Under the pieces are notes generated by a model. It saw only the letters and a program-made list of their open reading frames with translations, searched no databases and was not told the origin of the DNA. Below are positions 21,090 through 42,132 of a stretch of 64,000 bases of DNA, in pieces. The first letter of the stretch is position 1, and each line of letters opens with the position of its first letter. The translations under genes and the position numbers were made by a program. Source of the stretch: Lysobacter enzymogenes (GTDB lineage: Bacteria > Pseudomonadota > Gammaproteobacteria > Xanthomonadales > Xanthomonadaceae); NCBI RefSeq assembly GCF_900106525.1, contig NZ_FNOG01000008.1, positions 124,001 to 188,000 of the forward strand, written 5' to 3'.

Positions 21090-22340
21090 ATGTCGGGCAT
21101 CAACTTCAGCAATCCCCTGAGCGGTCTGCTGCCGGGCCTGGGCGGCTCCAAGCCCGGCCTGCCCGGCGGCCCGCTGCCGCCCGGCCTGAACCTGCCCGGC
21201 GGCGTCGACGCGCCGCCCGGCCACGGCGGCCTGCCGCCGGGCCACGACGGCCTGCCCAACCCGGGCGGCAACAACGGCCTGCCCGGCGACGACCCCTACG
21301 CGCCACCCGGCGCCAGCGGCCCCGGCCTGCCCGCCACGCCCGACGCCGTCGCCCAGCCCAACGCGCCCCTGCTCAATCCCGACAACCCGGCCAGCCGCCT
21401 GCTGCAGGGCCAGTCGCCGGGCGCGAACGCCGGCAACAACGCCTACAACAACCCCTTCAACGCCAACGCTCCGACCCAGTACCCGCCGCCGACCCTGTCC
21501 GAACGCGCGCTCGCCAACGCGCCGCAGTTCGCGCTCGCCGACCGGTCGGCGGTGAATTACGGGGTGATGCCGGCGTCCGGCAACGCCCAGGGCGCCGTGG
21601 TGCAAGGCCAGGGCCTGCCGCAGACCGCTTCGGGTGCGTTGCCGGCGAGCGTCGGCAACAGCGCCGCCGCCGCGGCTCCGAACGCCGCCAACGCGGCCGC
21701 GCCGACGCTGAGCCTGGTCGGCGCCGCCACGCCCAATGCGGTGCCGGCCGCGCCGATGGCCGCGGCGATGTCGCAGGACGCGCTGGTCGCGCAACAGAAC
21801 CTGCTCGCGCGCATGGCCGGCCAGCACGCGCCGGCCGGCAACACCGCCGCCAACGCCGCGCCGCCGCCGTCGGAAACTTCGGCCACCTTGCCGGCGGTGG
21901 GCAGCAACGCCGCCAACGCCGATCCGCGCTCGCTGCCGCTGGCCGGCCACGAGCGCGCCGCGCAGCAACGCGGCGACGCGCCGGGCAATCTGGTCTACAC
22001 CGGCGACGGCGCGCCGCGCCGCGCCTTGCGCCGCGGCGGCAAGGTCGACAACGCCACCCTGACCCACTGGCTGTGGCGCTTCGGCCGCGGCGGCATCCAC
22101 CGCCCCAGCCGCGAGGCCGAGCCGGAACTCGAAGCGCTGCGCGCGCTGCAGTGGCTGTTCTGGGTGCTGACCGTGGTCGCCTACGCCTGCCTGGCGATGG
22201 CGATCGTGCTGATGCTGCCCAGCGGCAGCCTGATCAGCGAACGCGCCAGCCCGGGCGGCAGCGGCGTGGCGCTGTTCCTGGCCGTGGTGGTCGCGGCGGG
22301 GGCGTGGTGGCTGGGGCGCAGGATCGGGCGTTCGCGCTGA
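21090..22340 (+). CDS. Gly/Pro-rich protein with two C-terminal membrane helices, next to the T3SS locus
   Basis: A 416-residue protein with no recognised domain. Residues 1-85 repeat GLPGG, LPPGL and PPGHGGLP-type motifs, a collagen- or elastin-like low-complexity tract. A long Ala/Asn/Pro-rich middle follows, then a basic patch (RRALRRGGK). The C-terminal 75 residues hold two hydrophobic segments, LQWLFWVLTVVAYACLAMAIVLML and GVALFLAVVVAAGAWWLG. There is no Sec signal. It borders the type III locus and ends at a strong bidirectional terminator. It could be a secreted translocator-like or effector protein, or unrelated; the sequence alone does not decide. The start is the second ATG; an in-frame ATG at 21075 is also possible. 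Confidence 0.65.
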   Translation: MSGINFSNPLSGLLPGLGGSKPGLPGGPLPPGLNLPGGVDAPPGHGGLPPGHDGLPNPGGNNGLPGDDPYAPPGASGPGLPATPDAVAQPNAPLLNPDNPASRLLQGQSPGANAGNNAYNNPFNANAPTQYPPPTLSERALANAPQFALADRSAVNYGVMPASGNAQGAVVQGQGLPQTASGALPASVGNSAAAAAPNAANAAAPTLSLVGAATPNAVPAAPMAAAMSQDALVAQQNLLARMAGQHAPAGNTAANAAPPPSETSATLPAVGSNAANADPRSLPLAGHERAAQQRGDAPGNLVYTGDGAPRRALRRGGKVDNATLTHWLWRFGRGGIHRPSREAEPELEALRALQWLFWVLTVVAYACLAMAIVLMLPSGSLISERASPGGSGVALFLAVVVAAGAWWLGRRIGRSR

Positions 22341-22368
22341 AGGGTCTGTCGCGTCGGAGCCGAAGGCA

Positions 22369-22426
22369 TCGGGCCTGAAGGCCCTCCCGAGTTGTTGTGG
22401 GAGGGCCTTCAGGCCCGACGCTTTTG
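22369..22426. terminator. Bidirectional hairpin terminator (GGGAGGGCCTTCAGG repeat family)
   Basis: Two 20-bp arms (22369-22388 and 22399-22418) pair perfectly around gagttgttgt and are followed by CGCTTTTGTTT. It lies between convergent genes ending at 22340 and 22446, so it probably ends both. A single arm with the same tail (ggccttcaggctcgacgctt) occurs at 5996-6019, so this is a mobile or dispersed repeat used as terminator. Confidence 0.75.
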
Positions 22427-22445
22427 TTTCAGCTCGCCGCGCGCT

Positions 22446-23240
22446 TCAACGCGTCAAACCGCCCGCGCTGAAGCGGAAATCCCGCAAATCCAGCCCCAAG
22501 GTCCGCCGGATGTCCTCGCGCGCCGCACGCGCGAACGCGGCCTGGGTCTGCGGATCCGGCGCGCGCGCGAACTGCGCCAGCTTCTCGTCCAGGTTCAACG
22601 AGCGGAACAGGAAATCGTCGGCCACCCATTGCCGCTGCGCCGGCGCCAGTTGCGCCAGCACGCCGTTGTCGGCGAAGGAGCCGCGCATCTGCTCGCGCAG
22701 CGCGCGCAACGCCGGCGCCGACGGCAGCGGCGCCTGATGCACCAGCGCCCAGTTGACCGCGACGTGATAAGCGGCGACGTCGGCGAGGTTGTCGTTGGAC
22801 AAGCCGCGCGCCGGCAGCGTGGCGGCGAAGCGGCGGCGGTAATCGGCGCCGCCGGAGCGGCGGGCGAAATCGTCGGCGACGCCGCGGCTCTGCTTGGCCA
22901 TCGCCGCGATCAAGGCCGCGCGCACGCGCTCGGTGGTGGCTGCGTCGCGCCGGAACGACAGGTCCGCCGCAGCCGGTTTCGTTGCCGGCTTGGAGGCCGG
23001 CCTGGACGTCGTCGCCGCGTCGCGGCCGCGCTGGCTCAGCGAGCGGTTGATCGCCGCGTTGACCGCGGCGGTGCCGGCGGTGTTCTGCATCGAGGTCATG
23101 CTCGAATTGAACGAATCCATGTACGGCTGGTAGTCCTGCGCCCAGGCCGGCGCGCACGCGCCGAGCAGCGCCACGGCCGCGATGCGGCGCGCGTGCGCCG
23201 TTGCGGCAGCCGAAAGGATCGTCACCGGACGCGTCGCCAC
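22446..23240 (-). CDS. Exported protein of unknown function at the T3SS locus edge
   Basis: About 264 residues. The N-terminus is a Sec signal peptide (RRIAAVALLGACAPAWAQ), then DYQPYMDSFNSSMTSMQNTAG, a Ser/Pro/Ala linker and a helical domain with ERVRAALIAAMAKQSRG, NLADVAAYHVAVNWALVH and RTLGLDLRDF. The last part resembles a DUF6683-like domain from memory, unconfirmed. The start is uncertain: GTG at 23240 or 23225 both give a good signal peptide; an ATG at 23363 overlaps the previous stop but would run through a terminator hairpin (23305-23330). A Sec signal makes it an unlikely type III substrate; a periplasmic accessory role is possible. Confidence 0.65.
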   Translation of the reverse strand: MATRPVTILSAAATAHARRIAAVALLGACAPAWAQDYQPYMDSFNSSMTSMQNTAGTAAVNAAINRSLSQRGRDAATTSRPASKPATKPAAADLSFRRDAATTERVRAALIAAMAKQSRGVADDFARRSGGADYRRRFAATLPARGLSNDNLADVAAYHVAVNWALVHQAPLPSAPALRALREQMRGSFADNGVLAQLAPAQRQWVADDFLFRSLNLDEKLAQFARAPDPQTQAAFARAAREDIRRTLGLDLRDFRFSAGGLTR

Positions 23241-23294
23241 GCAAAGCGTCGTGGAAGTCGTAGCAGAAATCGCCGTGCGAATCGCCAACCGCAG

Positions 23295-23330
23295 AAACGC
23301 GAAAGGAGCGAAGCCTCGCGGCTTCGCTCC
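23295..23330 (-). terminator. Terminator of the leftward sct operon
   Basis: GGAGCGAAGCC-TCGC-GGCTTCGCTCC (23305-23330) forms an 11-bp perfect stem; on the minus strand it is followed by TTTCGCGTTTC. It lies 33 bp after the last gene of the sctV-to-needle operon and before the separate exported-protein gene. Confidence 0.7.
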
Positions 23331-23362
23331 CTCTCGCTCGCGCCGCGGGCGCGAAGCCGCCA

Positions 23363-23671
23363 TCAACCCTTGCGGGCGGTGTTGGCGTTGGTGTCGCCGA
23401 TGGTCTTCACCACGTTGGTGAAGGTGTTCATCATCAGCTGGAATTCCGACACCAGGGCCTGGGTCTTGAGCATGTCGCTGGGCTTGGCGTCGGCCGGCAG
23501 GTCGTTGATCGCCTTGGTCATCTGGTCGGCCTTCTGGTCGGCGAGCTTGCCGCACAGGGTGGCGATCGCGTGCAACCAGCCCTTGCCGGCCACCTTGGCT
23601 TCTTCGGTCTTGTTCTGCACTTCCTGATTGGCCAGGGAGTTGACGAACAGGGCATTCACGTCGTTGCTCAT
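23363..23671 (-). CDS. Small helical protein, candidate T3SS needle subunit (SctF-like)
   Basis: A 102-residue, all-helical soluble protein with no signal peptide, beginning MSNDVNALFVNSLANQEVQN. Its C-terminal half has the order DML-x2-Q-x2-V-x7-N-x5-VVKTIGD, which parallels the C-terminus of needle proteins (in EscF, ML-x2-Q, an N and KTIKD are spaced alike). Size is near the upper end for SctF (usually 70-90). It is the last gene of the left-reading sct operon, with GGAG before the ATG and a terminator after the stop. The assignment is inference from pattern; a structure prediction would be needed to tell it from an EspA- or rod-like protein. Confidence 0.5.
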   Translation of the reverse strand: MSNDVNALFVNSLANQEVQNKTEEAKVAGKGWLHAIATLCGKLADQKADQMTKAINDLPADAKPSDMLKTQALVSEFQLMMNTFTNVVKTIGDTNANTARKG

Positions 23672-23886
23672 GATCTTCTCCAATGCGATGCGTTGTGCGA
23701 GATAGAGCGGTTCAGCCTGGTCGTCGAGACCCGCCCCTGTTTGGTTGATGCCATCTTCCGCAGCGCCGCGGGAGCCAACAAGCTATGGCGTACCCTAGGG
23801 GGAGTCGGGAAGAACCCCGGCGCAGCGGCGAAGAGTGAGAACCGCGCCGCGCTTTCGCGCGCTGTCCCCGCTCGCCTGCGCCCGAT

Positions 23887-24357
23887 TCAGCCGCCCCACG
23901 GATTGCGCGGCGTGGCCTTGCGCGCAGCCGGCTGCGCCGGTGCGGTCGCGGCGGCGGCGGCCTGCGCGGTCTTGCGCGCGGCGTTGCGCTCGTTCAGCCA
24001 TTGCGCCGCGGCTTCTTCGCCCTGCTCGCGGCGGCGGCGCGAATACTCGTAGGCGTCCTGGATGGTGTCGCGGCGCAACGGCTCCAGGGTGTCGTCGAAA
24101 CGGCGCAGGTGTGATTCGCGCTCGCTGGCGCTGGCGTCGGGCACCAGCGCGTCGACCGCGGCGGCCCAGTCGCGGCGCAGCCCTTCGGGGTCGAAGTCGG
24201 CCGGCGCCGAGAGATCCTGCTGCTGCAACGCTTCGTCGAAATGCTGCAGTAGCAGGCCGCGGTCGTCGGCGCTGAGCTCGGCCTGTTCCTGCAACAGGTT
24301 CTCGAACGAGGCCCGCAGCTGGCGGCGCTGGTCGTCGGCGGCGTTCTGGGTGGTCAT
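23887..24357 (-). CDS. Hypothetical helical protein within the sct operon
   Basis: A 156-residue, highly charged protein with Gln-rich helices (LLQEQAELSADDRGLLLQHFDEALQQQ), no signal peptide and no membrane segment; the tail is Ala/Pro-rich and ends RNPWGG. It lies between sctP and the needle-like gene in the same direction, with 66 bp to sctP. Its place suggests a T3SS accessory, such as a chaperone or substrate, yet I recognise no family. The acidic N-terminal 110 residues are compatible with a chaperone-like helical bundle, which is only a guess. Confidence 0.6.
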   Translation of the reverse strand: MTTQNAADDQRRQLRASFENLLQEQAELSADDRGLLLQHFDEALQQQDLSAPADFDPEGLRRDWAAAVDALVPDASASERESHLRRFDDTLEPLRRDTIQDAYEYSRRRREQGEEAAAQWLNERNAARKTAQAAAAATAPAQPAARKATPRNPWGG

Positions 24358-24423
24358 CGGTGGCGTTCCATCGGTTGGGTGTGAGGAGCCCGCGCCGCGT
24401 CCGGCGCGGCGGGCCGGCGGCGG

Positions 24424-25209
24424 TCAGTCGTGGAAATGCGGATCGATGCTAAGCGGGCCGAGGTTGCGCGCGGCGAAGCGGCGCATCAGCTCGGGGCCGG
24501 CTTCGCGGATCGCGTCGTAGCTGGAGCGCGAGCGCGAATCGGCGCGCAGCTGCCAGCCTTCGGCGGTCTTGCTCAGCAGCAGGTCGGTGCCGGGCAGGGT
24601 CTGGTCGGACAGGCGCAGCAGCACCTGGCCCTGCTCGCCGTCGGCGCCGCCGCTGCTGACCGCGAGCTGGCGCACGTGGCGCTCGATCAGGTCGGCGAAG
24701 GCGGCCGCGTTGGAGGTCGGCGGCGGCGGCTGCATCGGCGCGGCCTGCTCCGAGCGCATCGCTTGCTGCGCCAGCCACAGGCCCGATTGCTCGGACGAAG
24801 GCTCGCCGCCGCCGCGCTCGAAGCCGACCGTGTAGCGCTGCTCGTCGCGCGACTTGCTCTCGATCGACTGCTGCCGCGCCTGGCCTTGGGCGGCGTGATT
24901 CTGCGCGCTCTGGTCCTGGGCGTACTGGTTGCGGCCGCGTTCGAGCGCGTTTTGCTGGCGGCTGCGCAGCGCCTGCGCGGCGGTGTCGGCGGCGGCGTAC
25001 TGGCCGTCCTCGGGCTGCTGCGCGCCGGGCGGTTGCTCGCCCTTGTGGCCGAGCGCCTGGCGTTGCTGCATCAGGTTGCGGAACTGGTCGACCGATTCGG
25101 CCGGCGCCGGTTCGTGCGCGGCCAAGCGGCGTTCGGACACCTGCGCTTCCTGCGCGGCCTGCTGGGCGCGCTTGGCGTCTTCGTTGGCGGAGTTGCGGAT
25201 CGTACTCAT
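24424..25209 (-). CDS. sctP: T3SS needle-length regulator candidate (SctP/HpaP-like)
   Basis: A 261-residue protein with a long hydrophilic, Gln/Ala-rich, apparently disordered first 150 residues and a compact C-terminal domain. The C-terminal part, LLRLSDQTLPGTDLLLSKTAEGWQLRADSRS, is like the conserved end of the HrpP/HpaP/SctP family, which switches substrate specificity through SctU. Its place directly after sctO and sctN is the usual one for sctP. Compared with YscP it is short and lacks clear ruler repeats. The start ATG at 25209 lies 7 bp after the sctO stop. Identification rests on place and the C-terminal pattern. Confidence 0.68.
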   Translation of the reverse strand: MSTIRNSANEDAKRAQQAAQEAQVSERRLAAHEPAPAESVDQFRNLMQQRQALGHKGEQPPGAQQPEDGQYAAADTAAQALRSRQQNALERGRNQYAQDQSAQNHAAQGQARQQSIESKSRDEQRYTVGFERGGGEPSSEQSGLWLAQQAMRSEQAAPMQPPPPTSNAAAFADLIERHVRQLAVSSGGADGEQGQVLLRLSDQTLPGTDLLLSKTAEGWQLRADSRSRSSYDAIREAGPELMRRFAARNLGPLSIDPHFHD

Positions 25210-25216
25210 GGCGACC

Positions 25217-25720
25217 TCAGAAGGGACTGTTGTCGTGAGCGGAGCGCTGGCGCGCGGCCAGCAACAGATCGGCGGAATGCGCTTCCTCGCGGCGTTGGGC
25301 GATCGCGTTTTGTTCCTTGCGCCACACGTCGCGGCGTTTCTCCAGCGCCTCCAGCCGCGCCTTGGCGCGAAAGAAGGCCTTGCGCGCTTCGTCCAACGCG
25401 GCCTCGGCCTCGCGCAGCTTGCCCTGCGCGTCGGCCAGGCGCTGGCGCGCGGCGGTGGCCAGTTCGGCCAGATGCTCGATATGCGCTTCGCGCTGCGACA
25501 TCGCCATCGGCCAGGGCACGCCCGCCGGCGGCGGGTCGAGCAGGCGCAGGCGCTGGCCGGCGCGCTCGTTCTGCAGCGACTGGATCTCGCCCTCGATCGC
25601 CACGCAGGCCTCGCGCCGCGCCTGCACCTGGCGCTGGCGCTCCATCACCGCCGCGCGCGCGGTCTCCACGCGGTGCTCGCGCAGCTGCAGCAAGGTGGCC
25701 AGGGGAAAGCGCTGCTTCAT
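25217..25720 (-). CDS. sctO: T3SS stalk protein SctO (YscO/HrpB7-like)
   Basis: A 167-residue protein that is nearly all alpha-helical coiled coil, with heptad-like stretches (ARAAVMERQRQVQARREACVAIEGEIQSLQ and EAEAALDEARKAFFRAKARLEALEKRRDVWRKEQ). This two-helix hairpin is the fold of SctO, which enters the SctN hexamer like the gamma subunit of F1-ATPase. It starts inside the last codons of sctN (4-bp ATGA overlap), the normal coupled order sctN-sctO. Family members share little sequence, so the name rests on length, coiled-coil content and place. Confidence 0.8.
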   Translation of the reverse strand: MKQRFPLATLLQLREHRVETARAAVMERQRQVQARREACVAIEGEIQSLQNERAGQRLRLLDPPPAGVPWPMAMSQREAHIEHLAELATAARQRLADAQGKLREAEAALDEARKAFFRAKARLEALEKRRDVWRKEQNAIAQRREEAHSADLLLAARQRSAHDNSPF

Positions 25721-27069: not shown

Positions 27070-27109
27070 CGCGCGACTCCGCGCGCAGCGGTCGGCGACG
27101 CGAACACGC

Positions 27110-27847: not shown

Positions 27848-27884
27848 GGCGGTTCCGTGGCTGCAGCGAAGAAAGGGCGCGCGC

Positions 27885-28529
27885 TCAGGCGCTCAGCGGG
27901 CGCGCGCCGTGATGGGTGTGCAGGCGCTCGACCACGTCCGGCGGCAAATGCGCGACCAGCGCCGGCGCTTCGTCGTGCAGCTCGCGCGGCAGCAGCAGGC
28001 GCACCCAGTCGGCCAGGCCGGGGTCGCGGCGCTCGGCCCACAGCCGCAGTTCGGCGCGGCCGCGCAGGTCGAGCAGGAAATACAGCGGCGCGTCCTCGTC
28101 CATGCGCAGCGCGCGGTCGAGGTTGTCGGCCAGTTGCAGGGCGAGTTGGTTCTGCACCTTGCCGTCCCATACCTGGCTGTCGAGCGCGAGCAGATACGCG
28201 TTGTCGAGCGCCTGCTTGAGCCGGCGCACCGGTTCGCGCCGCACTTCGGCGCGGATCGCCGGGGCGTAGGCGAGCGCGCCGAGATCGCGCACCAGCCGTT
28301 CCACCCGCGCGCGCGGCCAGCGCAGCGCGGCGGCGGCGAAACCCGCGCCCGGCTGCGGCGCCAGCAGCGCCGGCGCGGCTTCGGCGGCGAGCCAGCCGCC
28401 GAGCAGGCGGCGGCCGATCGCGCTGTCGCGCGCGGCCACCAGCAATTCCGGGGCGATGCGCTCGTCGCCGCGGCCGTGCCAGCTGGCATCGGTCTCGGTC
28501 AGCACTGCGCGCAGCGCCGCGGCGCTCAT
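27885..28529 (-). CDS. sctK: T3SS sorting-platform protein SctK (YscK-like)
   Basis: A 214-residue soluble protein linking SctD to the cytosolic SctQ/SctL platform. It has ARVERLVRDLGALAYAPAIRAEVRREPVRRLKQALDNAYLLAL and a C-terminal segment LADWVRLLLPRELHDEAPAL as seen in YscK-type proteins. The gene lies between sctJ and sctL, which is decisive, since the family diverges strongly. The ATG at 28529 overlaps the sctJ stop by 3 bp (ATGA). A much longer in-frame extension upstream runs antisense-like through sctJ and is not coding. Confidence 0.8.
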   Translation of the reverse strand: MSAAALRAVLTETDASWHGRGDERIAPELLVAARDSAIGRRLLGGWLAAEAAPALLAPQPGAGFAAAALRWPRARVERLVRDLGALAYAPAIRAEVRREPVRRLKQALDNAYLLALDSQVWDGKVQNQLALQLADNLDRALRMDEDAPLYFLLDLRGRAELRLWAERRDPGLADWVRLLLPRELHDEAPALVAHLPPDVVERLHTHHGARPLSA

Positions 28530-29326
28530 CCGTTCCACACTCCGCCGCGGGCGTTGCTCGGCGGCGGCGGCGCGGCCGGCGGGAACAGGCGCGAGCGCAG
28601 GCGGCCGAAGAAGAACGCCACGATCGCCAGCAGCACCAGCACGCCGGCGCCGATGATGACCGCGCTCAGGTCGATCGAGCCCAGCACCGCGTTGAGCGGG
28701 CCGCCGGTCTGGCTGACCTTGGGCGGCGACTGCACGGTGAAGAACTTCACCGTGACCTTGTTGACGTCGTCCAGGCCTTCGACGCTGTCCTTGACGAACA
28801 CTTTGATGTCGGTCTCGCGGTCGCGCAGGCTCTGGCCCGGGCGTTCGAAGATCAGCACCGAGGCCGAGGAATCCTGGACGTTGCCGCCGAGCGGGTCGCG
28901 GTCGGGCAGGGCGATGTGCACGCGCGCCTCGACCACGCCGTCGATGCGGGTCAGCGTGCGCGAGAGTTCCTGCGACAGGCCGTAGAGGTAGCGCGCCTTC
29001 TCTTCCAGCGCCGAGGAGGCGAAGCCTTCCTTCTTGAACACGTCGCCGAGCGAACGGTACTGCGCGCGCGGCAGGCCGCGCGAGGTCAACACCTGCATCG
29101 CGTAGGGGATGTCGCCGCGGTTGACCATGACCTCCCAGCCGGTCTTGCTCGGCGAGGGGTCTTTCTCGGCGGGGATGCCCGCGTCGAGCAACGCCGCCAT
29201 CAGTTCGTTGGCCTGCTGCTCGTCGAGTTGGCTGTACAGCGGCGTGCGCGTACACCCCACGATCAGCAAGCAGGCCAGCAGGGCCGCCAGAATCCTTAAA
29301 GCTTTGAAGCCCGACGCCCTACCCAT
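28526..29326 (-). CDS. sctJ: T3SS inner-membrane ring lipoprotein SctJ (YscJ/HrcJ)
   Basis: A 266-residue lipoprotein. The signal ends in the lipobox LLIVGC (Cys25), then TPLYSQLDEQQANELMAALLDAGI, the conserved start of the first ring-building domain. The second domain includes TRIDGVVEARVHIALPDRDPL and SSASVLIF. A C-terminal transmembrane helix (VIIGAGVLVLLAIVAFFFG) and a basic/proline tail follow. SctJ forms the inner ring of the injectisome basal body with SctD. It lies between sctI and sctK with short spacing. The length is family-typical. Confidence 0.95.
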   Translation of the reverse strand: MGRASGFKALRILAALLACLLIVGCTRTPLYSQLDEQQANELMAALLDAGIPAEKDPSPSKTGWEVMVNRGDIPYAMQVLTSRGLPRAQYRSLGDVFKKEGFASSALEEKARYLYGLSQELSRTLTRIDGVVEARVHIALPDRDPLGGNVQDSSASVLIFERPGQSLRDRETDIKVFVKDSVEGLDDVNKVTVKFFTVQSPPKVSQTGGPLNAVLGSIDLSAVIIGAGVLVLLAIVAFFFGRLRSRLFPPAAPPPPSNARGGVWNG

Positions 29327-29356
29327 GCATCCCCCGTGTGGTGTGTGCCTTGCGCG

Positions 29357-29958: not shown

Positions 29959-30345
29959 TTACTGCTTCGACGCCAGCTTCTCGATGCCCTGGGCGATCGA
30001 GTTGATCGAGGTCGAGGCGCTGTTGGAGATGAACTGCATGCGCAGGCTCTGCGAGGTCAGCGCGATCATCGACGAGGGCTGGTCGTCGCCGCCGCCGATC
30101 GTGCCCGACAGCTCGGTGATGCGCGACGCCTGCGCGTCCATGGTCTGGCCCCAGGCGCGCGCCATCGACTCGTACCAGCTCGCGCTGCTGCCGCCGCCGC
30201 CGCCGGCCGAGACGCCGCCGCCGCTGCTGTTGCCGGCGCCGCGCGAACCCTTGCCGTTGCCGACGGCGTCGTTCTTGTTGACGTCGGCGATGAAGGTGTT
30301 GACCAGGCCGGCGGTACCGCCGGCGCCGTTGACTGCATTACTCAT
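29959..30345 (-). CDS. T3SS rod/needle-like protein with glycine-rich insertion
   Basis: A 128-residue protein starting MSNAVNGAGGTAGLVNTFIA. A glycine/serine-rich stretch (about residues 31-55, GSRGAGNSSGGGVSAGGGGGSS) is unusual for this class. The C-terminal 40 residues (MIALTSQSLRMQFISNSAST, then SINSIAQGIEKLASKQ) mirror the order in SctI: MI-x-(L/M)T, F-x-S, then GI-x2-L-x3-Q. GGAGAG stands before the ATG. It sits between sctD and sctI, the place of sctF in Ysc systems, so it may be the needle or a second rod protein. Which of this and 23363-23671 is the true needle is open. Confidence 0.55.
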   Translation of the reverse strand: MSNAVNGAGGTAGLVNTFIADVNKNDAVGNGKGSRGAGNSSGGGVSAGGGGGSSASWYESMARAWGQTMDAQASRITELSGTIGGGDDQPSSMIALTSQSLRMQFISNSASTSINSIAQGIEKLASKQ

Positions 30346-30529: not shown

Positions 30530-31990
30530 TCATTGTCGGTTTCCGGGCCGCGCGGGCGCTTCGGCCACGGCCGGGCGCGCGTTGGCGGCGGCGGACGCGG
30601 GCGGGGTCGTCGGTGCGGGCGCCGTCGTCGCCGGTTTCGCGGCGGCGGCCGGCGTCTTGGCGGCGCTGGCCGCAGCGGCGTCGGCGGCGGGCGGACTGGC
30701 CGCGGTCGCCGCATCGGCGGCCGGCGCGGCGCCGCTGGCGATCGCCAGTTCCTGCGCGGTCAGCGGCTGCACCTTGATCTCTTCCATCATGCCGTTGAGC
30801 TTGTTGAACGCCCATACCTTCTTGGAGCCGATTCCGGTAACGGTGCGGCCATCGGGCAGGGCATCGCCGTCCAGATACTCGTTGCCGTCGACGTCGACCA
30901 GCCGCGGTTTTTCGTCGCGCAAGATCTTGACGATCCGGGTCGGCTCGGTCGGCAGCGCCTTCTTCGGTTCCTCCGGCGCGGCCACGGCGGGGCCGGCGGC
31001 GACCGGGCTCGCGTCGAGGTCGCGCTTGATCACCCGACGCACCCCGGCGACGTCCTGCATCGCGCGCGAGGCGATCGCGCGCGAGAACAGCGACGGGTCG
31101 GCGAAGTGGCCGCTGACTTCGACATCGCCGTCGCCCAGGTAACGCGTCTGCGTGGCCAGGCCCTGGCTGCGCAGCACTTCGCGCACGTCGCCGGCGATGT
31201 CGTCGCCGGTGCGCAGTTCCAGCCGCGCCTCGACCTCATCGGTGATCAGGCGCTTGCGGATCATCTCGCGCGTGGCCGCGTCCTTGACCGTGCCCGACAG
31301 CACCAGGCCGCCGTCCTCGTTCTCGACCAGGCGTCCGCCGGCGATCGAGAACTCCTTGATCAGCGGCTGCACCAGTTGGGTCGGCGTGGGTTTTTTCTCG
31401 AAGCCCGGCATCACCGCCGCGGCGATCGCCACCGACACCAGCGACAGCGCCGCCAGGCCCGCGATCAGCGGCAGGTGGCGCATCGGCGCCTTGGCCGGAC
31501 GCGCGGCGTCGGCGAGGTTGGGCAGCATCGTCGCCCAGCCCGGATCCTCGGCCGCGCCGACCGCGAACGAGGCGCCGCCGATGTCGACGCGCTGCATCGC
31601 CGCGAGCTCGGCCGGATCGCCCGGGCTCAAGGTCTGGCCGTCGATGAACAAGGGCGCGTCGAGCGCGCGCAGCGACACGGTGCCGCCCATACGGGTCAGG
31701 AACGCGTGGCGCGGGGCGACGTTGGGATCGGACAGGACGATGTCGCAATCGCCGCTGCTGCCGATCAGCACGGTTTCCTGCGCCGACAGCGGCCGGCTGC
31801 CGCCGGTGTGCAGGCCCGAGACGATGCGCAGCACGCTGATCGCCGGCGAGGCGACGCGGATTTCAGCGTTGCGTTGTTCGGCCGCGGCCGGCGCCGATTC
31901 GACAGCGCGCGGCTCGGCGGCGTCGGCCGCCTGCGCAGGCGCATCGCCGGTCGGGCCGTCGGGCGTAGCGTGTGGGTCGGGGGACATCAT
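30530..31990 (-). CDS. sctD: T3SS inner-membrane ring protein SctD with FHA domain
   Basis: A 486-residue protein. After a disordered acidic leader, residues about 45-130 form the cytosolic FHA-like domain (LRIVSGLHTGGSRPLSAQETVLIG and VAPRHAFLTR). One transmembrane helix (LIAGLAALSLVSVAIAAAVMP, about 175-195) leads to periplasmic ring-building domains (IKEFSIAGGRLVENEDGGLVL). The C-terminus has an Ala/Pro-rich tail of about 80 residues longer than usual. SctD links the sorting platform to the outer ring. The ATG pair at 31990 follows AGGAG. It stands after sctV and a possible 33-codon gene. Confidence 0.9.
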   Translation of the reverse strand: MMSPDPHATPDGPTGDAPAQAADAAEPRAVESAPAAAEQRNAEIRVASPAISVLRIVSGLHTGGSRPLSAQETVLIGSSGDCDIVLSDPNVAPRHAFLTRMGGTVSLRALDAPLFIDGQTLSPGDPAELAAMQRVDIGGASFAVGAAEDPGWATMLPNLADAARPAKAPMRHLPLIAGLAALSLVSVAIAAAVMPGFEKKPTPTQLVQPLIKEFSIAGGRLVENEDGGLVLSGTVKDAATREMIRKRLITDEVEARLELRTGDDIAGDVREVLRSQGLATQTRYLGDGDVEVSGHFADPSLFSRAIASRAMQDVAGVRRVIKRDLDASPVAAGPAVAAPEEPKKALPTEPTRIVKILRDEKPRLVDVDGNEYLDGDALPDGRTVTGIGSKKVWAFNKLNGMMEEIKVQPLTAQELAIASGAAPAADAATAASPPAADAAAASAAKTPAAAAKPATTAPAPTTPPASAAANARPAVAEAPARPGNRQ

Positions 31991-32005
31991 CGCGGTAACT
32001 CCTGT

Positions 32006-32107
32006 TCAGGCGCCGCCGCCGAAGGCGGGGCGCGCGGCCGGGACGCGCGATACGCGCGGGCCGTTCGGCCGATGAATGGGGAAATAAGCGCTCGCAGCGA
32101 GGGTCAT
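32006..32107 (-). CDS. Possible 33-residue small protein between sctV and sctD
   Basis: An ATG at 32107 with the strong ribosome binding site AGGAGA (9-bp spacing) opens a frame of 33 codons beginning MTLAASAYFPIHRPNGPR and ending in PAFGGGA, stopping at TGA 32006. It fits exactly between sctV (14 bp) and sctD (15 bp), as if part of the operon. No family is recognised, and no membrane helix. It may be a microprotein of the secretion apparatus or a translational coupling leader. Confidence 0.45.
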   Translation of the reverse strand: MTLAASAYFPIHRPNGPRVSRVPAARPAFGGGA

Positions 32108-32121
32108 GGCGAATGGTCTCC

Positions 32122-34185
32122 TCAGGCGTTCACCTGACCGGCCTGCACGATGCGCAGGTCGGGCGCGAGTTCCTGGTAGGACAGCACCGGCAACTCGAAG
32201 AAGTCGATCTCCAGCAGCTTGCGCAGATGACGGCGAACATCCAGTGAACACAGCAACACCGGTTTTATGCCTTCGCCCTGTCGCGAAAGATGCGAACGCA
32301 CCTCCGCGCCCAGGCGTCCGGCCAGCTCCGGCGAGATCGCCAGCTGGGTCGCGCCGCCGGCCACGCGCACCGACTGGCGCAGGCGGTCTTCCAGTTCCGG
32401 ATGGATCAGCAGCACCTGCATGGTGCGTTCGCCGTCGGCGTAGCGGTCGGCGATTTCGCGCTTGAGCGCCACCCGCACGTATTCGGTCAGCAGCACCACG
32501 TCTTTTTCGCGGCCGCCGACGTCGGTGATGGCTTCGAAGGCGTCGCGCAGATTGCGGATCGGCACGCCTTCCTCGACCAGCCGGCGCAGCACGTCGGCCA
32601 CGCGCTGCGGCGCGACCACGCGCAGCATTTCCTTGACCAGGTCCGGATAGTCGCGCTGCATGCGCCCGAACAGGTTGGAGGCTTCCTGGATGCCGATGAA
32701 GCTGCCCAGGCGCCGCTCCAGCGCATGGCGGCAATGCTCCATCACCGTGTCCAGCGCGTCGCGGATGCCGTGGCCGGCCTGCCCGGTCCATTCGCCCGCC
32801 AGCGGCGGGAAGAAGCCCGGCAGCTTGGGCGCGTTGGCGTCGCCGGCGCGCGCGGCGCGGAACTGCGCGTTCGGCGACAGCCGGCCGAACGCCAGGCGCG
32901 CGCCGAACGCGGTCAGGCGGTAGCCGCCGAGGCCGTCGTCGCCTTCCAGGTCGGCGGCGATCTTCACCACCGGCACCGGCAGCGGCACGCCGTATTCGTC
33001 GCGCAGGCGGCGCGCGACCTCGACCATGCGCGTACGCGCGGCCTGCTCGCCGAACGCGGCCGCCAGCGACGGCGCGATCTCCAGCTGCAACGGCGCGGGC
33101 GGCGCGACTTCGTCCTCGTTGAGCGGCCTGTCCTCGGCCGCGCGCTCGCCCTCGGGCACGCTGAAAGCGCGGCGCAGCAACGGATGGTGGTGGCGATAGC
33201 GCCAGGCGGCGATGCCCAGCAGCACCATCGACAGCGCGAAGAACACCGGCTTGGGGAAGCCCGGCACGAAGACCATCAGGAACGCCAGGCAGCCGGTGAT
33301 CAGCACCACGCGCGGCTGGCCGGAGACCTGGCGGGTGATCGACTCGCCCAGGTGGCGGTCGTCCTCGTCGCCGGCGGTGCGGGTCACCACCAGGCCGGCG
33401 GCGATGGTCGCCAGAATGGCCGGGATCTGCGAGACCAGGCCGTCGCCGATGGTCAGGATCGAATAGGTGTGGGTGGCGTCGCTGAGCGGCATGCCCTTCT
33501 GCAGCACGCCGATGGCCAGGCCGCCGAGCAGGTTGATGATGATGATGACGATGCCGGCGATGGCGTCGCCCTTCACGAACTTCATCGCGCCGTCGAGGCT
33601 GCCGTGCAGCTGGCTTTCCACCTCCAGCAGGCGGCGCTTGCGCTTGGCCTCGTCCTTGTCGATCAGGCCGGCGCGCAGGTCCGAGTCGATCGACAGCTGC
33701 TTGCCCGGCATCGCGTCCAGGGTGAAGCGCGCGGCCACTTCGGCCACGCGCTCGGCGCCCTTGGCGATGACGATGAACTGGACCACGGTGATGATCAGGA
33801 ACACCACGAAGCCGACCACCAGGTTGCCGCCGGCGACCAGACTGCCGAATGTTTCGACGATATGACCGCCGTTGGCCTCGAGCAGGATCGAGCGGGTGAT
33901 CGCGATCGACAGCGACAGCCGGAACAGCGTGGTCAGCAGCAGCACGCTGGGGAAACTGGAGAACGCCACGGGCGTGGGGATGTACAGCGCGATCAGCAGC
34001 AGGCCGAAGCCGATCGCGATGTTGATCGCGACCAGCGTGTCGATGATCGCCAGCGGCAGCGGCAGGATCATCACGCCGATGATGGTCACCGCCGCGAACG
34101 CCAGGACCACGTCGCTGTAGCCCGCGCGCCGACGGCCCTGCGCGCCGGACGCGGTAGCGATCCAGGAAGTCAGCAGTCCACGCAT
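32122..34185 (-). CDS. sctV: T3SS export gate protein SctV (HrcV/FlhA family)
   Basis: A 687-residue protein with about eight N-terminal membrane helices and a large cytosolic domain. The FHIPEP-type signature is visible from LYIPTPVAFSSFPSVLLLTT to FRLSLSIAITRSILL. The loop RFTLDAMPGKQLSIDSDLRAGLIDKDEAKRKR is nearly invariant in the family, and TIGDGLVSQIPAILATIAAGLVVTR follows. The cytosolic domain (from about 350) forms the nonameric ring that receives chaperone-substrate complexes. It is the first gene of the left-reading sct operon, behind a 400-bp intergenic region that probably contains the operon promoter. Confidence 0.96.
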   Translation of the reverse strand: MRGLLTSWIATASGAQGRRRAGYSDVVLAFAAVTIIGVMILPLPLAIIDTLVAINIAIGFGLLLIALYIPTPVAFSSFPSVLLLTTLFRLSLSIAITRSILLEANGGHIVETFGSLVAGGNLVVGFVVFLIITVVQFIVIAKGAERVAEVAARFTLDAMPGKQLSIDSDLRAGLIDKDEAKRKRRLLEVESQLHGSLDGAMKFVKGDAIAGIVIIIINLLGGLAIGVLQKGMPLSDATHTYSILTIGDGLVSQIPAILATIAAGLVVTRTAGDEDDRHLGESITRQVSGQPRVVLITGCLAFLMVFVPGFPKPVFFALSMVLLGIAAWRYRHHHPLLRRAFSVPEGERAAEDRPLNEDEVAPPAPLQLEIAPSLAAAFGEQAARTRMVEVARRLRDEYGVPLPVPVVKIAADLEGDDGLGGYRLTAFGARLAFGRLSPNAQFRAARAGDANAPKLPGFFPPLAGEWTGQAGHGIRDALDTVMEHCRHALERRLGSFIGIQEASNLFGRMQRDYPDLVKEMLRVVAPQRVADVLRRLVEEGVPIRNLRDAFEAITDVGGREKDVVLLTEYVRVALKREIADRYADGERTMQVLLIHPELEDRLRQSVRVAGGATQLAISPELAGRLGAEVRSHLSRQGEGIKPVLLCSLDVRRHLRKLLEIDFFELPVLSYQELAPDLRIVQAGQVNA

Positions 34186-35074: not shown

Positions 35075-35222
35075 GGCGATTGAGTGCGCAACCAGAGTCG
35101 GGAACGGAAGGAGCGCGGACGGCGAGAACGGCGGCCGGCGCGCGGCGACATACCGTAGCAGCCCGTCGCGGCTTCACGCCGCAGGCCGCGTGGCCGCGCC
35201 GGCGCGCGCGGGGGATTGAGGC

Positions 35223-36305
35223 ATGGCCCGCACCCGCTCCGCCAATGCCGGCACCAGCGCGCAGGCCGCGCGCGACGACGCCGGCCTGCTCGCCGCGGTG
35301 CCGTTCGCCTGCGCGGTGTTCGCCGGCGACGGCGCGCTGCGCGCGGCCAACGCGCGCTACCGCGACGAATTCGGCGAACTGCCCGAACACGCCCGGCGCG
35401 AGGCCCTGCTTGAACGACTGCAGGCGCCGGCCGGCGAAGGCGCGCGCCCGCGCGAGGTGCGCGCCCCGCACAGCGGCCGCTGGTACGCGCTGCACTGGGG
35501 CCGGGCCGAGCACGCCGGCGAGGCCGCCGACGTGCTCACCGCGGTCGACATCAGCGAGCGCATCGAAACCCTGGCCTCGCACAAGAGCCGGCAGGAAAAA
35601 CTGCTGTTCACCTCGCGCATGATGTCGGTCGGCGAAATGGCCGCGACCCTGGCGCACGAGCTCAACCAGCCGCTCGCGGCGATCATGAATTACGTAAACG
35701 GCAGCCTGCGCCTGGTCGAACAGGCCGGCGGCCCGGTCCAGGTCGAACGCGCGCTGCAGGCCGCGCGGACCCAGGCCGAGCACGCCAGCGCGGTGATTTC
35801 GCGGGTGCGCGAGTTCGTCCGCGCGCGCGAGCCGCGGCGCGAGCCGCATGCGCTGGCGCGCATCGCCGAAACCGTGCTGGAGCTGCTGCGGCTGGAGGCC
35901 GAGCGGCTGGACCTGCGCATCGACCTGGCCCTGCCCGAGCCGCTGCCGCCGGTGTTCGCCGACCGGGTGATGGTCGAGCAGGTGCTGCTGAACCTGGTCA
36001 AGAACGCGATCGAAGCGATGCGCGAGATCGCCCCGGAGCGGCGCGAGCTGCGCATCGACGCGCGCCTGAACCTGGACGAGCAAGTCGAGGTGCGGGTGTC
36101 CGACCGCGGCGCCGGCCTCAGCCCGGCCGAGCAAGACCAACTGTTCTCGCCGTTCTTCACCACCAAGACCGACGGCCTGGGGATCGGCCTGGCGATCTGC
36201 CGCTCGATCATCGAATACCACGAGGGCCGGCTGTTCTTCGAACCGCGCGCCGGCGGCGGCAGCGTGTTCGGCTTCACCCTGCCGCGCTACGAGGCGCGCG
36301 CTTGA
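35223..36305 (+). CDS. Sensor histidine kinase of the T3SS locus
   Basis: A 360-residue soluble kinase. Residues about 20-115 form a PAS-like domain ending in TAVDISERIETL. The HisKA box is GEMAATLAHELNQPLAAIMNYVNG (His145), followed by VKNAIEAM (N box), SDRGAGLSPAEQDQLFSPFFTTK (G1/F) and GLGIGLAICRSIIEYHEGRL (G2). It lacks membrane helices, so it would sense a cytosolic signal, as FixL-type or NtrB-like kinases do; no haem-binding pattern is evident. It lies divergent from the FliO-like gene and 151 bp before a FixJ-type regulator, making a cognate pair in the middle of the sct genes. Confidence 0.92.
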   Translation: MARTRSANAGTSAQAARDDAGLLAAVPFACAVFAGDGALRAANARYRDEFGELPEHARREALLERLQAPAGEGARPREVRAPHSGRWYALHWGRAEHAGEAADVLTAVDISERIETLASHKSRQEKLLFTSRMMSVGEMAATLAHELNQPLAAIMNYVNGSLRLVEQAGGPVQVERALQAARTQAEHASAVISRVREFVRAREPRREPHALARIAETVLELLRLEAERLDLRIDLALPEPLPPVFADRVMVEQVLLNLVKNAIEAMREIAPERRELRIDARLNLDEQVEVRVSDRGAGLSPAEQDQLFSPFFTTKTDGLGIGLAICRSIIEYHEGRLFFEPRAGGGSVFGFTLPRYEARA

Positions 36306-36456
36306 GCGGCGCACAGGTGACAAACATCAGCATCGCCGCCCCGCCGCTCCGGGTTATACCGTCGCGCTGGCGCGCAGCCGGGCCGGGCCGCGCCGCACCG
36401 ATGCGCCGGCCGGCCCCGCGCGGCGCCGGCGCGCGAACCGATGGAGGGACATCCGC

Positions 36457-38179: not shown

Positions 38180-38182
38180 GTC

Positions 38183-39118: not shown

Positions 39119-39244
39119 CACGGGGCCATGAAGGCCGCGCGCAAGGTCGACGACCTCGCGTCCCGATCGCCGATGCGGCCCGCGTTGCCCTGATTCCCCT
39201 CATTCCCCAGCCCGCAGACCTCCCCGCCGCAACGGATCCGACCC

Positions 39245-39511
39245 ATGGGCGACATGCTCGAGATGACCAAACAGGCCCTGTGGCTGACCCTGCTGCTGTC
39301 GGGTCCGCCGGTGGTGGCCGCGGCCGTGGTCGGGCTGGTGGTGGCCTTCATCCAGGCCGCCACCCAGTTGCAGGAGCAGACCTTCGCCTACGCGATCAAG
39401 TTCACCGTGATCGTGGTGACCTTGTTCGTCACCGCGTCGATGATCGGCGGCACCTTGTACACCTTCGCCGACCGCATCTTCCTCGACTTCCCCGGCATGA
39501 TCCGGCACTGA
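39245..39511 (+). CDS. sctS: T3SS export gate protein SctS
   Basis: An 88-residue protein with two hydrophobic hairpin helices, ALWLTLLLSGPPVVAAAVVGLVVAFIQAATQLQEQTFAY and VTLFVTASMIGGTLYTFADRIF. This is the length and order of SctS/FliQ, four copies of which join the SctR-SctT helix. The LSGPP and QAATQLQEQT motifs are conserved. It follows sctR after 126 bp, a longer gap than the other junctions, with no gene in it, and precedes sctT by 19 bp. Confidence 0.96.
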   Translation: MGDMLEMTKQALWLTLLLSGPPVVAAAVVGLVVAFIQAATQLQEQTFAYAIKFTVIVVTLFVTASMIGGTLYTFADRIFLDFPGMIRH

Positions 39512-39530
39512 TGCGCGCGGCGACGACGCG

Positions 39531-40325: not shown

Positions 40326-40341
40326 TCGCGTTCGCGCTTTT

Positions 40342-40438
40342 TGCAGGAGCGGCGCGAGCCGCGACTGCGACAACGCAACTACGCCGAAAGGTTCGCAGCA
40401 GGTGCGTTGTCGCGGTCGCGGCTCGCGCCGCTCCTACA
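40342..40438. repeat. Inverted pair of the GTAGGAGCGGCGC repeat between sctT and sctU
   Basis: A right-facing copy (40342-40377) and a left-facing copy (40403-40438) share about 35 bases in inverted order including gcgccgctcctaca and tgcgttgtcgc. It lies 16 bp after the sctT stop and 50 bp before the sctU stop, so it may serve as terminator for both. Confidence 0.8.
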
Positions 40439-40487
40439 GGGGGATACGTGCGGGATCGGGGACGCGCGGAAAGCTGCGCAACTCGCG

Positions 40488-41597
40488 TCAGCGCGGGTCG
40501 TCCAGCCGCGGCGGCAGTTCCGGCGCGCTGTCGTCGCCGTCGCGCAGGCGGCGCATGGTCTCGGCCCAGTGCAGCACTTCGGCCACGGCCTCGAAGAATT
40601 CGTTGCCGATGTACTCGTCCAGCTCGGCCCGCTCGTGCAGGCCGCGCGCGAGTTCGATGTTCTGCAGGATCGGCACGCCGGCCTCGACCGCGGCGCGCTT
40701 GATCGCCTCGGCCATGTAGCCCTCGCCCTTGGCCACCACCACCGGCAGGTCGGTGATGCCGTGCTCGTACTGCAGGGCGATGGCGATGTGGGTGGGGTTG
40801 GTCACGACGACGTTGGATTGGCGGACGGCGTTGAGCATGTTCTGCTGCGACCATTCCTGATGCAACTGCCGGCGCCGGCTCTTCACGTGCGGGTCGCCCT
40901 CGTTCTCCTTGACCTCCTGCTGGATGTCGCGCCGGCTCATGCGCAACTGCTTGAGGTAGGAGAACTTCTGGTACCACACGTCGATGGCGGAGACGAAGAA
41001 GAACACGAAGATCGTCCACACCACGATCCGCACCAGGCCGTACCAGATGCCCGAGCCCATCGCCTCCGGCGGCGCGTAAGGCAGCAGCATCAGCTGGCCC
41101 AGCATCTTGTAGATCACGAACACGCCGATGCCGATCAGCGCCGCGCTCTTGATCACCGACTTGACCAGCTCGACCACATTGTCGAGCGAGAACATCTTCT
41201 TGACGCCCTCGGCCGGGTTCATCTTGTCCATCGCCGGCTTGAGCTTGCCCAGCGCCAGGATCGGGCCGACCTGCAGGAATTCGACGATCGCGCCGAGGAA
41301 CACCGCCATCGCCAGCAGCGGCAGGGTCAGCCACAGCAGGGTTTCGAAGGCCGAACCGCCGACCTCGCGCAAGGCGTCGCCGAAGGGCTGGTTGACCGCC
41401 TTGAGGCTGGTTTCGAACAGGCGGATCAGCTTGAGCCGCATGAAGTCCATCATCAGCCAGCCGCACACCACCCAGCCCAGCACCAGCACGGTACTGGTGA
41501 GCTCCTTGCTCTTGGCGACATTGCCTTCCTTGCGCGCGTCGCGGATCTTTTTCTGGGTCGGCGGCTCGGTCTTGTCGGCGCCCTGGTCCTTCGCCAT
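40488..41597 (-). CDS. sctU: T3SS export switch protein SctU (HrcU/FlhB family)
   Basis: A 369-residue protein. It begins with the conserved KTEPPTQKKIRDARKEGNVAKSKEL, has four membrane helices to about residue 205, then a cytosolic domain. The autocleavage motif NPTH is at residues 267-270 in VVVTNPTHIAIALQYEHG, needed for substrate switching with SctP. The tail is longer and more acidic than usual (SAPELPPRLDDPR). It is convergent with sctT, not in the QRST operon. The start ATG at 41597 begins the conserved N-terminus. Confidence 0.96.
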   Translation of the reverse strand: MAKDQGADKTEPPTQKKIRDARKEGNVAKSKELTSTVLVLGWVVCGWLMMDFMRLKLIRLFETSLKAVNQPFGDALREVGGSAFETLLWLTLPLLAMAVFLGAIVEFLQVGPILALGKLKPAMDKMNPAEGVKKMFSLDNVVELVKSVIKSAALIGIGVFVIYKMLGQLMLLPYAPPEAMGSGIWYGLVRIVVWTIFVFFFVSAIDVWYQKFSYLKQLRMSRRDIQQEVKENEGDPHVKSRRRQLHQEWSQQNMLNAVRQSNVVVTNPTHIAIALQYEHGITDLPVVVAKGEGYMAEAIKRAAVEAGVPILQNIELARGLHERAELDEYIGNEFFEAVAEVLHWAETMRRLRDGDDSAPELPPRLDDPR

Positions 41598-41823
41598 GCG
41601 CGGCCCTGCTGCGGGAAGGGCATCGAGGCTAGCACGCAGGCCACAGTGCGAAAGTGGCGGGTGTCAGCAATCGCCGCCGGGCCTGCGACAGGCAGCGGCG
41701 AGCGGCGCCTGAACGCGCGATGGGCACGCCCACCGCACCTAGGGTCGCCCCGAGTTGGCCGTTTCCGCGCCTCGGGGCTACATTGCGTCCATCCCCCAAA
41801 CCGCGACCGCTCCCACTGCCCGC

Positions 41824-42132
41824 ATGAGCACCATCGGCCCCGATTCGCGCATCGACCGCACTGGCCTGGACAGCCAGACGCTGGAAGCGTTGCGCGTTCG
41901 CGAGCCGGCGGCGCAGGCGCCGGGCGCGCTCGCCGAGGCCGTCCCCGCCTATGCCCCGCCCGCGGTCGACCCCGGCGAGGAGACCCTCAACGCCGACGCC
42001 TGGCACGGCGTGCCCGCCGGCGAGCGCCAGCTGCCCGGCGACACCCGCCTGGAGCACGAGCTGGGCCAGCTCGACCTGTCCGCCGCCGCCGACCGCGGCG
42101 CCGAGGCGGTGCTGGATTCGCTGACCGCCTGA
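41824..42132 (+). CDS. Hypothetical acidic protein near the T3SS locus
   Basis: A 102-residue acidic protein beginning MSTIGPDSRIDRTGLDSQTL and ending AADRGAEAVLDSLTA, with many Ala, Pro and Glu residues, no signal peptide and no membrane segment. The ATG at 41824 is chosen over an in-frame GTG at 41755 that would add a Cys-free basic leader. It reads away from sctU with 226 bp between, and could be a small type III substrate or chaperone by place, though nothing in the sequence shows this. Confidence 0.55.
   Translation: MSTIGPDSRIDRTGLDSQTLEALRVREPAAQAPGALAEAVPAYAPPAVDPGEETLNADAWHGVPAGERQLPGDTRLEHELGQLDLSAAADRGAEAVLDSLTA

What the first reader, a model, noticed from the sequence alone, without database searches (positions are those of the whole stretch)
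21090..42132. Injectisome locus without a visible secretin, gatekeeper or translocators
The locus encodes SctV, D, I, J, K, L, N, O, P, Q, R, S, T, U and needle/rod-like proteins, yet no frame here looks like a secretin (SctC), SctW, a class I or II chaperone, or a translocator. Either these are elsewhere in the genome, or the system works without an outer-membrane secretin, as reported for some myxobacterial T3SS loci. With the FliO-like gene this makes an unusual gene set.
Basis: partly seen in the sequence, partly recalled or inferred. Interest (0 to 1): 0.8.

Follow-up and report, generated by a model that had tools for sequence, protein, structure and literature searches.

The report
Injectisome that lost its outer-membrane ring
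A syringe-like protein-export machine in soil Lysobacter bacteria and their relatives appears to have lost, once and long ago, the ring that lets it through the outer membrane, yet the rest of the machine has been kept, so it must either reach the outside some other way or work inside the cell envelope.

Summary
The window lies in a 6.26-Mb Lysobacter-type genome. Its injectisome has export gate, ATPase, inner rings, rod, ruler, two needle-like genes and a FliO-like gene, but no SctC; the genome's two secretins are PilQ and GspD. All 20 genus genomes drawn have exactly two secretins, with (15) or without (5) the injectisome. Absence of the secretin in Lysobacter is already in print (de Bruijn 2015). 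The rest I did not find in print. In 16 of 18 outside relatives sctC sits between sctV and sctD; two contigs end too soon. Of 40 family genomes with this injectisome, 39 (six genera) lack sctC and G074 keeps it in place. G074 branches outside the secretin-less loci, three nested placements being rejected (AU p<=0.0026): one old, clean loss, then purifying selection on SctV and SctN. Gatekeeper, SseC-translocator and SycD profiles are missing from the group, secretin or not. So this is a secondary loss, not the myxobacterial condition. The exit route is unknown; a borrowed secretin is my first guess.

The parts
21090..22340 (+). orf416: Pro/Gly/Ala-rich protein with a hydrophobic C-terminal hairpin (my reading); candidate secreted effector or translocator-like protein
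   Evidence: found at E<=0.001 in 33 of 39 secretin-less genomes, 0 of 5 T3SS-less genus genomes, in G074 away from its locus, and marginally in 1 of 8 other secretin-bearing genomes; no Pfam or NCBIfam match; alignment
22446..23174 (-). DUF6683 protein with an apparent Sec signal peptide (my reading of the sequence)
   Evidence: PF20388 47.7 bits (longer frame 22446-23555); next to an F gene also in secretin-bearing relatives; AlphaFold pLDDT 84, no PDB match at E<=0.001
23363..23683 (-). F: second needle-like (SctF-type) protein
   Evidence: PF09392 30.8 bits against 29.4; TIGR02105 26.3, below its cut-off of 41.7
23887..24357 (-). hyp156, unknown, one or two copies between sctP and F in family loci
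24424..25209 (-). SctP (ruler)
   Evidence: HpaP PF09483 20.6 bits, below cut-off of 23.8, and position
25217..25720 (-). SctO (stalk)
   Evidence: position; weak FliJ TIGR02473 18.8 bits
25717..27069 (-). SctN ATPase
   Evidence: PF00006 280 bits and T3SS_ATPase_C 75 bits
27110..27847 (-). SctL
   Evidence: PF06635 25.4 bits over cut-off of 23.3
27885..28529 (-). SctK
   Evidence: position and my family profile only; no NCBIfam match
28526..29326 (-). SctJ inner ring lipoprotein
   Evidence: PF01514 96 bits
29357..29782 (-). SctI rod
   Evidence: PF17001 24.2 bits, below cut-off of 32.4, and position
29959..30345 (-). orf128: conserved gene between sctD and sctI, probably the main needle subunit (inference)
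   Evidence: 29 of 31 loci called, the other two by profile; alignment; no Pfam, NCBIfam or PDB match; needle assignment from size, position and sequence pattern
30530..31990 (-). SctD: FHA domain, TM, periplasmic part kept
   Evidence: PF16697 53 bits; alignment
31991..32121 (-). site where relatives carry sctC; 131 nt between sctV and sctD, no remnant found
32122..34185 (-). SctV export gate
   Evidence: PF00771 645 bits
34586..35074 (-). FliO-like membrane protein
   Evidence: PF04347 36.1 bits over cut-off of 22; TIGR03500 37.2, below its cut-off of 55.25
35223..36305 (+). sensor histidine kinase
   Evidence: PF02518, PF00512
36457..37092 (+). LuxR-type response regulator
   Evidence: PF00072, PF00196
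37085..38179 (+). SctQ (C ring)
   Evidence: PF01052 46 bits
38183..39118 (+). SctR, with a long Ala/Pro-rich insert
   Evidence: PF00813 221 bits in two stretches
39245..39511 (+). SctS
   Evidence: PF01313 77 bits
39531..40325 (+). SctT
   Evidence: PF01311 189 bits
40488..41597 (-). SctU
   Evidence: PF01312 374 bits
41824..42132 (+). orf102, small conserved unknown
42236..42916 (+). orf226, conserved helical unknown, also in secretin-bearing relatives
   Evidence: alignment; AlphaFold pLDDT 81; no clear fold match

Best explanation
This is a needle-type type III secretion machine that descended from one with its own secretin and lost the sctC gene, once as far as the sample shows, in the common ancestor of six sampled genera of this family. 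Shown: the place of the loss, its cleanness, the absence of any SctC elsewhere in 39 genomes, and long conservation of the rest. Inferred: it still exports proteins across the inner membrane through the SctRSTUV gate. Inferred, weaker: its substrates cross the outer membrane through a secretin of another machine, PilQ of the type IV pilus or GspD of the type II system, the only two kinds that every member seems to have. The two-component system beside the gate genes probably controls it. My confidence is about 0.9 for the loss with retained function and about 0.4 for the borrowed secretin.
For: Position: sctC lies between sctV and sctD in 16 of 18 outside relatives, the other two contigs ending 0.8 kb after sctV, and in G074 (366 bits to TIGR02516, cut-off 238). 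It is missing there in 40 of 41 loci read, with sctV stop and start of the sctD profile match 30-318 nt apart against 2197 in G074, and no remnant (best E 0.32). Whole genomes: 39 of 40 lack it, with strong matches in 15 genomes of two other genus codes in the same search (four candidates scored per genome; PF00263 scored all). Tree: G074 outside the secretin-less loci, three nested placements rejected at AU p<=0.0026. Selection: dN/dS of SctV 0.03-0.21 and SctN 0.01-0.19 in 12 secretin-less pairs, 0.04-0.33 and 0.04-0.23 in three secretin-bearing pairs. Borrowed secretin: 26 of 39 secretin-less genomes have exactly two secretin genes; needle-like, rod and ruler genes are kept; in L. enzymogenes OH11 a FliI-type ATPase mutant stops PilA release and gate mutants stop twitching (PMC7277350, results section read), though those genes may be its flagellar set.
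Against: PilQ and GspD are equally present in genomes without the injectisome, so nothing ties them to it. The periplasmic part of SctD, which in known injectisomes meets the secretin (PMC3459982 passage), has a higher dN than its FHA part in 12 of 12 secretin-less pairs (ratio 1.15-7.6, median 2.0) against a median of 1.15 in five secretin-bearing pairs (0.74-2.65). That fits loss of a partner as well as change of partner; the set is small, the part boundaries were set by a script, and one secretin-bearing pair (2.65) lies among the secretin-less values. In the single-gene SctV tree the secretin-less clade has a support of only 0.70.
Confidence: 0.5

Rival explanations
1. The machine works to the periplasm only: it exports needle, rod and effectors across the inner membrane and builds a periplasmic structure or delivers periplasmic proteins, with no outer-membrane step.
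For: I recognised no outer-membrane pore among the locus genes. No locus gene that I tested was gained at the loss as a replacement: hyp156, F, DUF6683 and the small gene before them are also in G074. Faster change of the SctD periplasmic part fits a lost partner. Abby and Rocha mention that needle subunits still reach the periplasm when the SPI1 secretin is inactivated (PMC3459982, passage).
Against: Ruler SctP and needle-like genes are kept in nearly all loci whose fetched stretch reaches them, which a purely periplasmic exporter should hardly need.
Confidence: 0.25
2. An unrelated outer-membrane protein encoded elsewhere, or the needle or F filament itself, breaches the outer membrane.
For: The C-terminal periplasmic domain of SctD is kept. 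A lone FlgH-like protein exists in this genome, which has no second FlhA-type gene.
Against: The FlgH-like gene is on another contig, and 7 of 15 secretin-less genomes tried have no FlgH match, the close relative G015 among them. No good candidate was found; no search for other outer-membrane proteins was made.
Confidence: 0.22
3. The locus is a decaying relic that happened to lose sctC first.
For: The G001 locus is broken after sctD; sctU was not found near the locus in four loci; the window-L136 pair shows raised dN/dS in SctD (0.53) and orf128 (0.66).
Against: Low dN/dS of SctV and SctN in 12 of 12 pairs, and the same gene order in most of 40 secretin-less loci of six genera, contig ends and the cases just named aside.
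Confidence: 0.05

Closest known systems
Lysobacter T3S cluster of de Bruijn et al. 2015 (PMC4657364; section on regulation and secretion read)
   Same: Same genus; the paper states that the T3S secretin is absent in five strains and that only the T2S and type IV pilus secretins exist
   Different: The section read does not say where the gene was, that relatives keep it there, when it was lost, or how far the loss reaches
Lysobacter antibioticus Hz25 T3SS (PMC13163355; passages read)
   Same: Sct genes with HK and RR in one cluster, no secretin in the cluster
   Different: The authors take a PF00263/K02453 gene in the T2SS cluster as the required T3SS secretin. Hz25 itself was not tested here; in the window's genome the two secretins score as PilQ and GspD, and genus genomes without the injectisome have the same number
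Myxococcus T3SS* (PMC3459982, PMC10849154; passages read; Thiery 2022 not held)
   Same: No secretin, no known translocon; has a FliO homolog (PMC12403147, passages read)
   Different: Needle-less and placed by Abby and Rocha before the gain of secretins; the present system has needle, rod and ruler genes and lost a secretin
T3SS with FliO in Xanthomonadales, Sphingomonadales, Burkholderiales and others (PMC12403147; passages read)
   Same: Names a T3SS-associated FliO in Luteimonas huabeiensis (species of L005 here) and in orders to which the relatives here belong
   Different: Does not treat the secretin of these systems in the passages I read
Conventional injectisomes (the other SctV loci, and the T3SS of genus codes g17 and g7)
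   Same: Same core machine
   Different: In the SctV tree the present group is a separate clade (local support 0.998); the five conventional controls have SctW and SseC matches

Membership tests
[quoted passage not shown]
[quoted passage not shown]
   met in 16 of 18 outside relatives (two not readable) and in G074
[quoted passage not shown]
   F gene over the Pfam cut-off, below the NCBIfam one; orf128 by position only
[quoted passage not shown]
   0 of 24 group genomes (a 25th, Hahella, has matches that lie away from this locus), 5 of 5 controls; TIGR02552 has matches below its cut-off in all 30
Myxobacterial needle-less T3SS* | No secretin | tested here: met
Myxobacterial needle-less T3SS* | No needle | tested here: not met
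Myxobacterial needle-less T3SS* | Branches before secretin-bearing systems | tested here: not met
   nested among secretin-bearing relatives; no myxobacterial sequence was in the trees
Flagellum | Flagellar FlhA besides SctV in this genome | tested here: not met
   one match to the SctV protein in G000, 14 candidates scored
Flagellum | L-ring protein FlgH as common outer-membrane exit | tested here: not met
   partial FlgH-like match in G000 on another contig; no FlgH match in 7 of 15 secretin-less genomes tried
SctW gatekeeper (for orf226) | Gatekeeper fold | tested here: inconclusive

The most novel reading that the evidence does not exclude
A needle-bearing injectisome threw away its own outer-membrane ring once and has run for a long evolutionary time in many species by sharing the secretin of the type IV pilus or the type II system: a sharing of an outer-membrane pore between secretion machines that shows itself through a natural gene loss.
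Probability: 0.35. Interest if true: 0.85.

Novelty: new variant of a known kind. Interest (0 to 1): 0.62.

Why it matters
Secretins are treated as needed for needle-type secretion, and the order in which injectisomes gained them is a standing question. Here evolution has done the deletion: the same locus exists with sctC (G074, Dyella, Hahella, sphingomonads, Burkholderiales) and without it, in bacteria of which some are studied for biocontrol. That makes it possible to ask by ordinary knock-outs which outer-membrane pore, if any, is used. It also cautions against the reading in print that a T2SS-cluster secretin gene is the T3SS secretin, since genus genomes without the injectisome have the same two secretins.

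Tried and rejected
Assembly gap as the cause: rejected; the 39 genomes are listed at 98-100% complete, nine of them in one contig. SctC moved elsewhere: rejected by profile A1 (best match in the 39 at most 136 bits, against 654 in G074 and 443-481 for the best match in each of 15 genomes of genus codes g17 and g7, which scored four candidates per genome) and by PF00263 (all candidates scored). Gene remnant at the site: none found (best E 0.32 at the junctions, 0.67 over whole loci). A locus gene gained at the loss as replacement: rejected for hyp156, F, DUF6683 and c12 (also in G074) and doubtful for orf416 (a match in G074 too, 78.8 bits, on another contig; one search misses G327, where my profile sees one in L116). 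FlgH as common exit. orf226 as gatekeeper by fold: inconclusive. DUF6683 fold: no match at E<=0.001. Profile of orf128 against PDB sequences: nothing at E below 0.6. The first concatenated IQ-TREE run timed out; one search gave FastTree only on 46 of 69 rows, its IQ-TREE part did not finish; one search finished in fast mode on 24 of the 69 rows. dN/dS for SctO failed in 4 of 9 pairs, probably because the profile picked a wrong frame, and the values for hyp156 and F of window-L136 and for DUF6683 of L137-L139 look like non-orthologues; these were not used. The mixed pair L106-L131 was not counted in either group.
Full report
What is there. The window is G000:C3:124001-188000 of a 6.26-Mb genome in 23 contigs; the nearest named loci are Lysobacter (SctV 90 and 95%). 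Pfam finds the injectisome core: SctV, SctD, SctJ, SctL, SctN, SctQ, SctR, SctS, SctT, SctU, a FliO-like protein and one needle protein over their cut-offs, and SctI and SctP below them. My gene calling added SctO at 25217-25720 and a 128-residue gene at 29959-30345 that is conserved between sctD and sctI. A histidine kinase and a LuxR-type regulator lie between FliO and SctQ.

The absence. PF00263 finds two secretins in the genome; NCBIfam names them PilQ (487 bits) and GspD (527 bits), both over their own cut-offs and well under the SctC cut-off (137 and 114 against 238). All 20 genus genomes drawn have exactly two, and 15 of them have the close SctV. For SctW and SseC I searched 30 genomes: 25 of the group (14 secretin-less, 11 secretin-bearing) and 5 conventional controls. 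Both profiles match 5 of 5 controls and, of the group, only Hahella, whose matches lie on another contig or about 80 kb from the present locus and so belong, by my reading, to other T3SS loci; 0 of the other 24. The SycD profile over its cut-off gives the same six of 30, with G074 in place of one secretin-less genome; below its cut-off it matches all 30, as TPR proteins do.

Where the gene was. By tblastn and SctV tree 32 of them are of this group: L003-L019 and 15 of a sister set. Outside the Lysobacter and Luteimonas-type loci (L003-L016) there are 18; 16 have a secretin directly after sctV and before sctD; the other two, L028 and L050, end about 0.8 kb after sctV and cannot be read. The Dyella and Hahella secretins are over the SctC cut-off (341 and 378 bits). 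None of L003-L016 has one.

How far and how often. Of 297 genomes drawn from the family, 40 have SctV at 72-100% identity; the next is at 41%. With a profile of 13 secretins of the group (A1) over the same 297, one of the 40, G074, has a strong match (654 bits) that begins about 100 bases after its SctV match; 12 genomes of code g17 and 3 of g7 also have strong matches (443-481 bits), so the search works; the other 39 have only matches of at most 136 bits, the PilQ/GspD level. I fetched 40 loci (39 of the 40 genomes plus G008; the window stands for G000) and read the junction in all, 41 with the window: 40 have sctV and sctD next to each other without a remnant. By PF00263, 26 of the 39 have exactly two secretin genes and 13 have three or four; only those of this genome were named by NCBIfam, the rest I take as PilQ- and GspD-like from their scores.

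One loss. In a tree of seven joined proteins G074 is outside all secretin-less loci (FastTree, 46 rows, local support 1.0, fast ML on 24 rows, SH-aLRT 100). Placing G074 with three different secretin-less groups is rejected (AU p 0.0008, 0.0024, 0.0026). In a wider SctV tree of 86 rows rooted on flagellar FlhA the whole group is one clade (0.998) apart from the other injectisomes sampled; the deep branching of those is weakly supported (0.21), and in that single-gene tree the secretin-less clade has 0.70. No myxobacterial row was available.

Still under selection. NG86 dN/dS is 0.03-0.21 for SctV and 0.01-0.19 for SctN in 12 secretin-less pairs, 0.04-0.33 and 0.04-0.23 in three secretin-bearing pairs. 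SctD as a whole runs 0.11-0.42 in the 12 and 0.12-0.53 in the three. The periplasmic part of SctD has a higher dN than its FHA part in 12 of 12 secretin-less pairs (ratio median 2.0) and in 3 of 5 secretin-bearing pairs (median 1.15). This is suggestive only.

What else is in the locus. The F gene and its neighbours hyp156, a small Gly-rich gene and DUF6683 occur also at G074; in sphingomonads and Burkholderiales F is longer with a Gly-rich hydrophobic first half. I read this module as the group's own secreted tip or translocator set; that is inference. orf416 occurs in 33 of 39 secretin-less genomes, in G074 away from the locus, marginally (E 8e-4) in 1 of 8 other secretin-bearing genomes, and in 0 of 5 T3SS-less genus genomes. 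orf226 is conserved into the sister set; its model (pLDDT 81) has no clear match.

What is known. De Bruijn et al. 2015 reported the missing secretin and the two remaining ones in five Lysobacter strains (section read). The Hz25 paper of 2026 takes a T2SS-cluster gene as the T3SS secretin (passages). FliO in T3SS of Luteimonas and other orders is in print (passages). In OH11, FliI-, FlhA-, FlhB- and FliR-type genes affect twitching, FliP and FliQ do not, and only FliI affects PilA release (results read); these may be the flagellar genes, which some genus genomes seem to have in addition (second SctV-like match in 8 of 20). T3SS genes respond to signals in L. capsici AZ78 (passages). A 2004 thesis on the T3SS of L. 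enzymogenes C3 is cited in PMC9410377 (passages); I have not seen it. Searches for papers on a lost secretin in this group listed none (only the listed rows seen, of a library of open-licence papers).

Mechanism. Shown: loss, place, singleness within the sample, retention. Inferred: inner-membrane export works. Guessed: exit through PilQ or GspD (0.4), periplasm only (0.25), other pore (0.22), decay (0.05).

Noticed in passing
L156:8382-9041(+) (G000:C15) and L157:9474-10094(-) (G001): A lone protein with the C-terminal half of FlgH (52.6 and 51 bits, over cut-off) in two genomes with a single SctV/FlhA-type match; I recognised nothing flagellar in the neighbouring frames, without a family search.
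   Followed up: partly
L144 (G001:C1:5702734-5722694): The injectisome locus of G001 breaks after sctD and runs into repetitive sequence with N stretches; orf416 of this genome lies 1.6 Mb away. Rearrangement or misassembly.
   Followed up: partly
L013, L015, L129, L130 and L115/L165: sctU is not next to sctT; in G228 it lies about 17 kb further off beside orf102 and orf226 (L165), in G256 and G176 it was not found in about 19 kb more; L013 and L015 were not followed further.
   Followed up: partly
window 38183-39118: SctR carries a long Ala/Pro-rich insert between its conserved halves.
   Followed up: no
L014:18945-20603; also after sctP in L106, L107, L131: A LysM-M23 peptidase with a transglycosylase SLT match (22.5 bits, cut-off 21.3) follows sctP in several loci; a transglycosylase-like gene (my reading of the sequence) precedes sctV in the sister set.
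   Followed up: no
G262:C1:2465409-2470314: A different T3SS (SctV 41%) with a secretin match close by (255 bits) in one genome of code g7, besides a second, stronger SctC-type match (477 bits) elsewhere.
   Followed up: no
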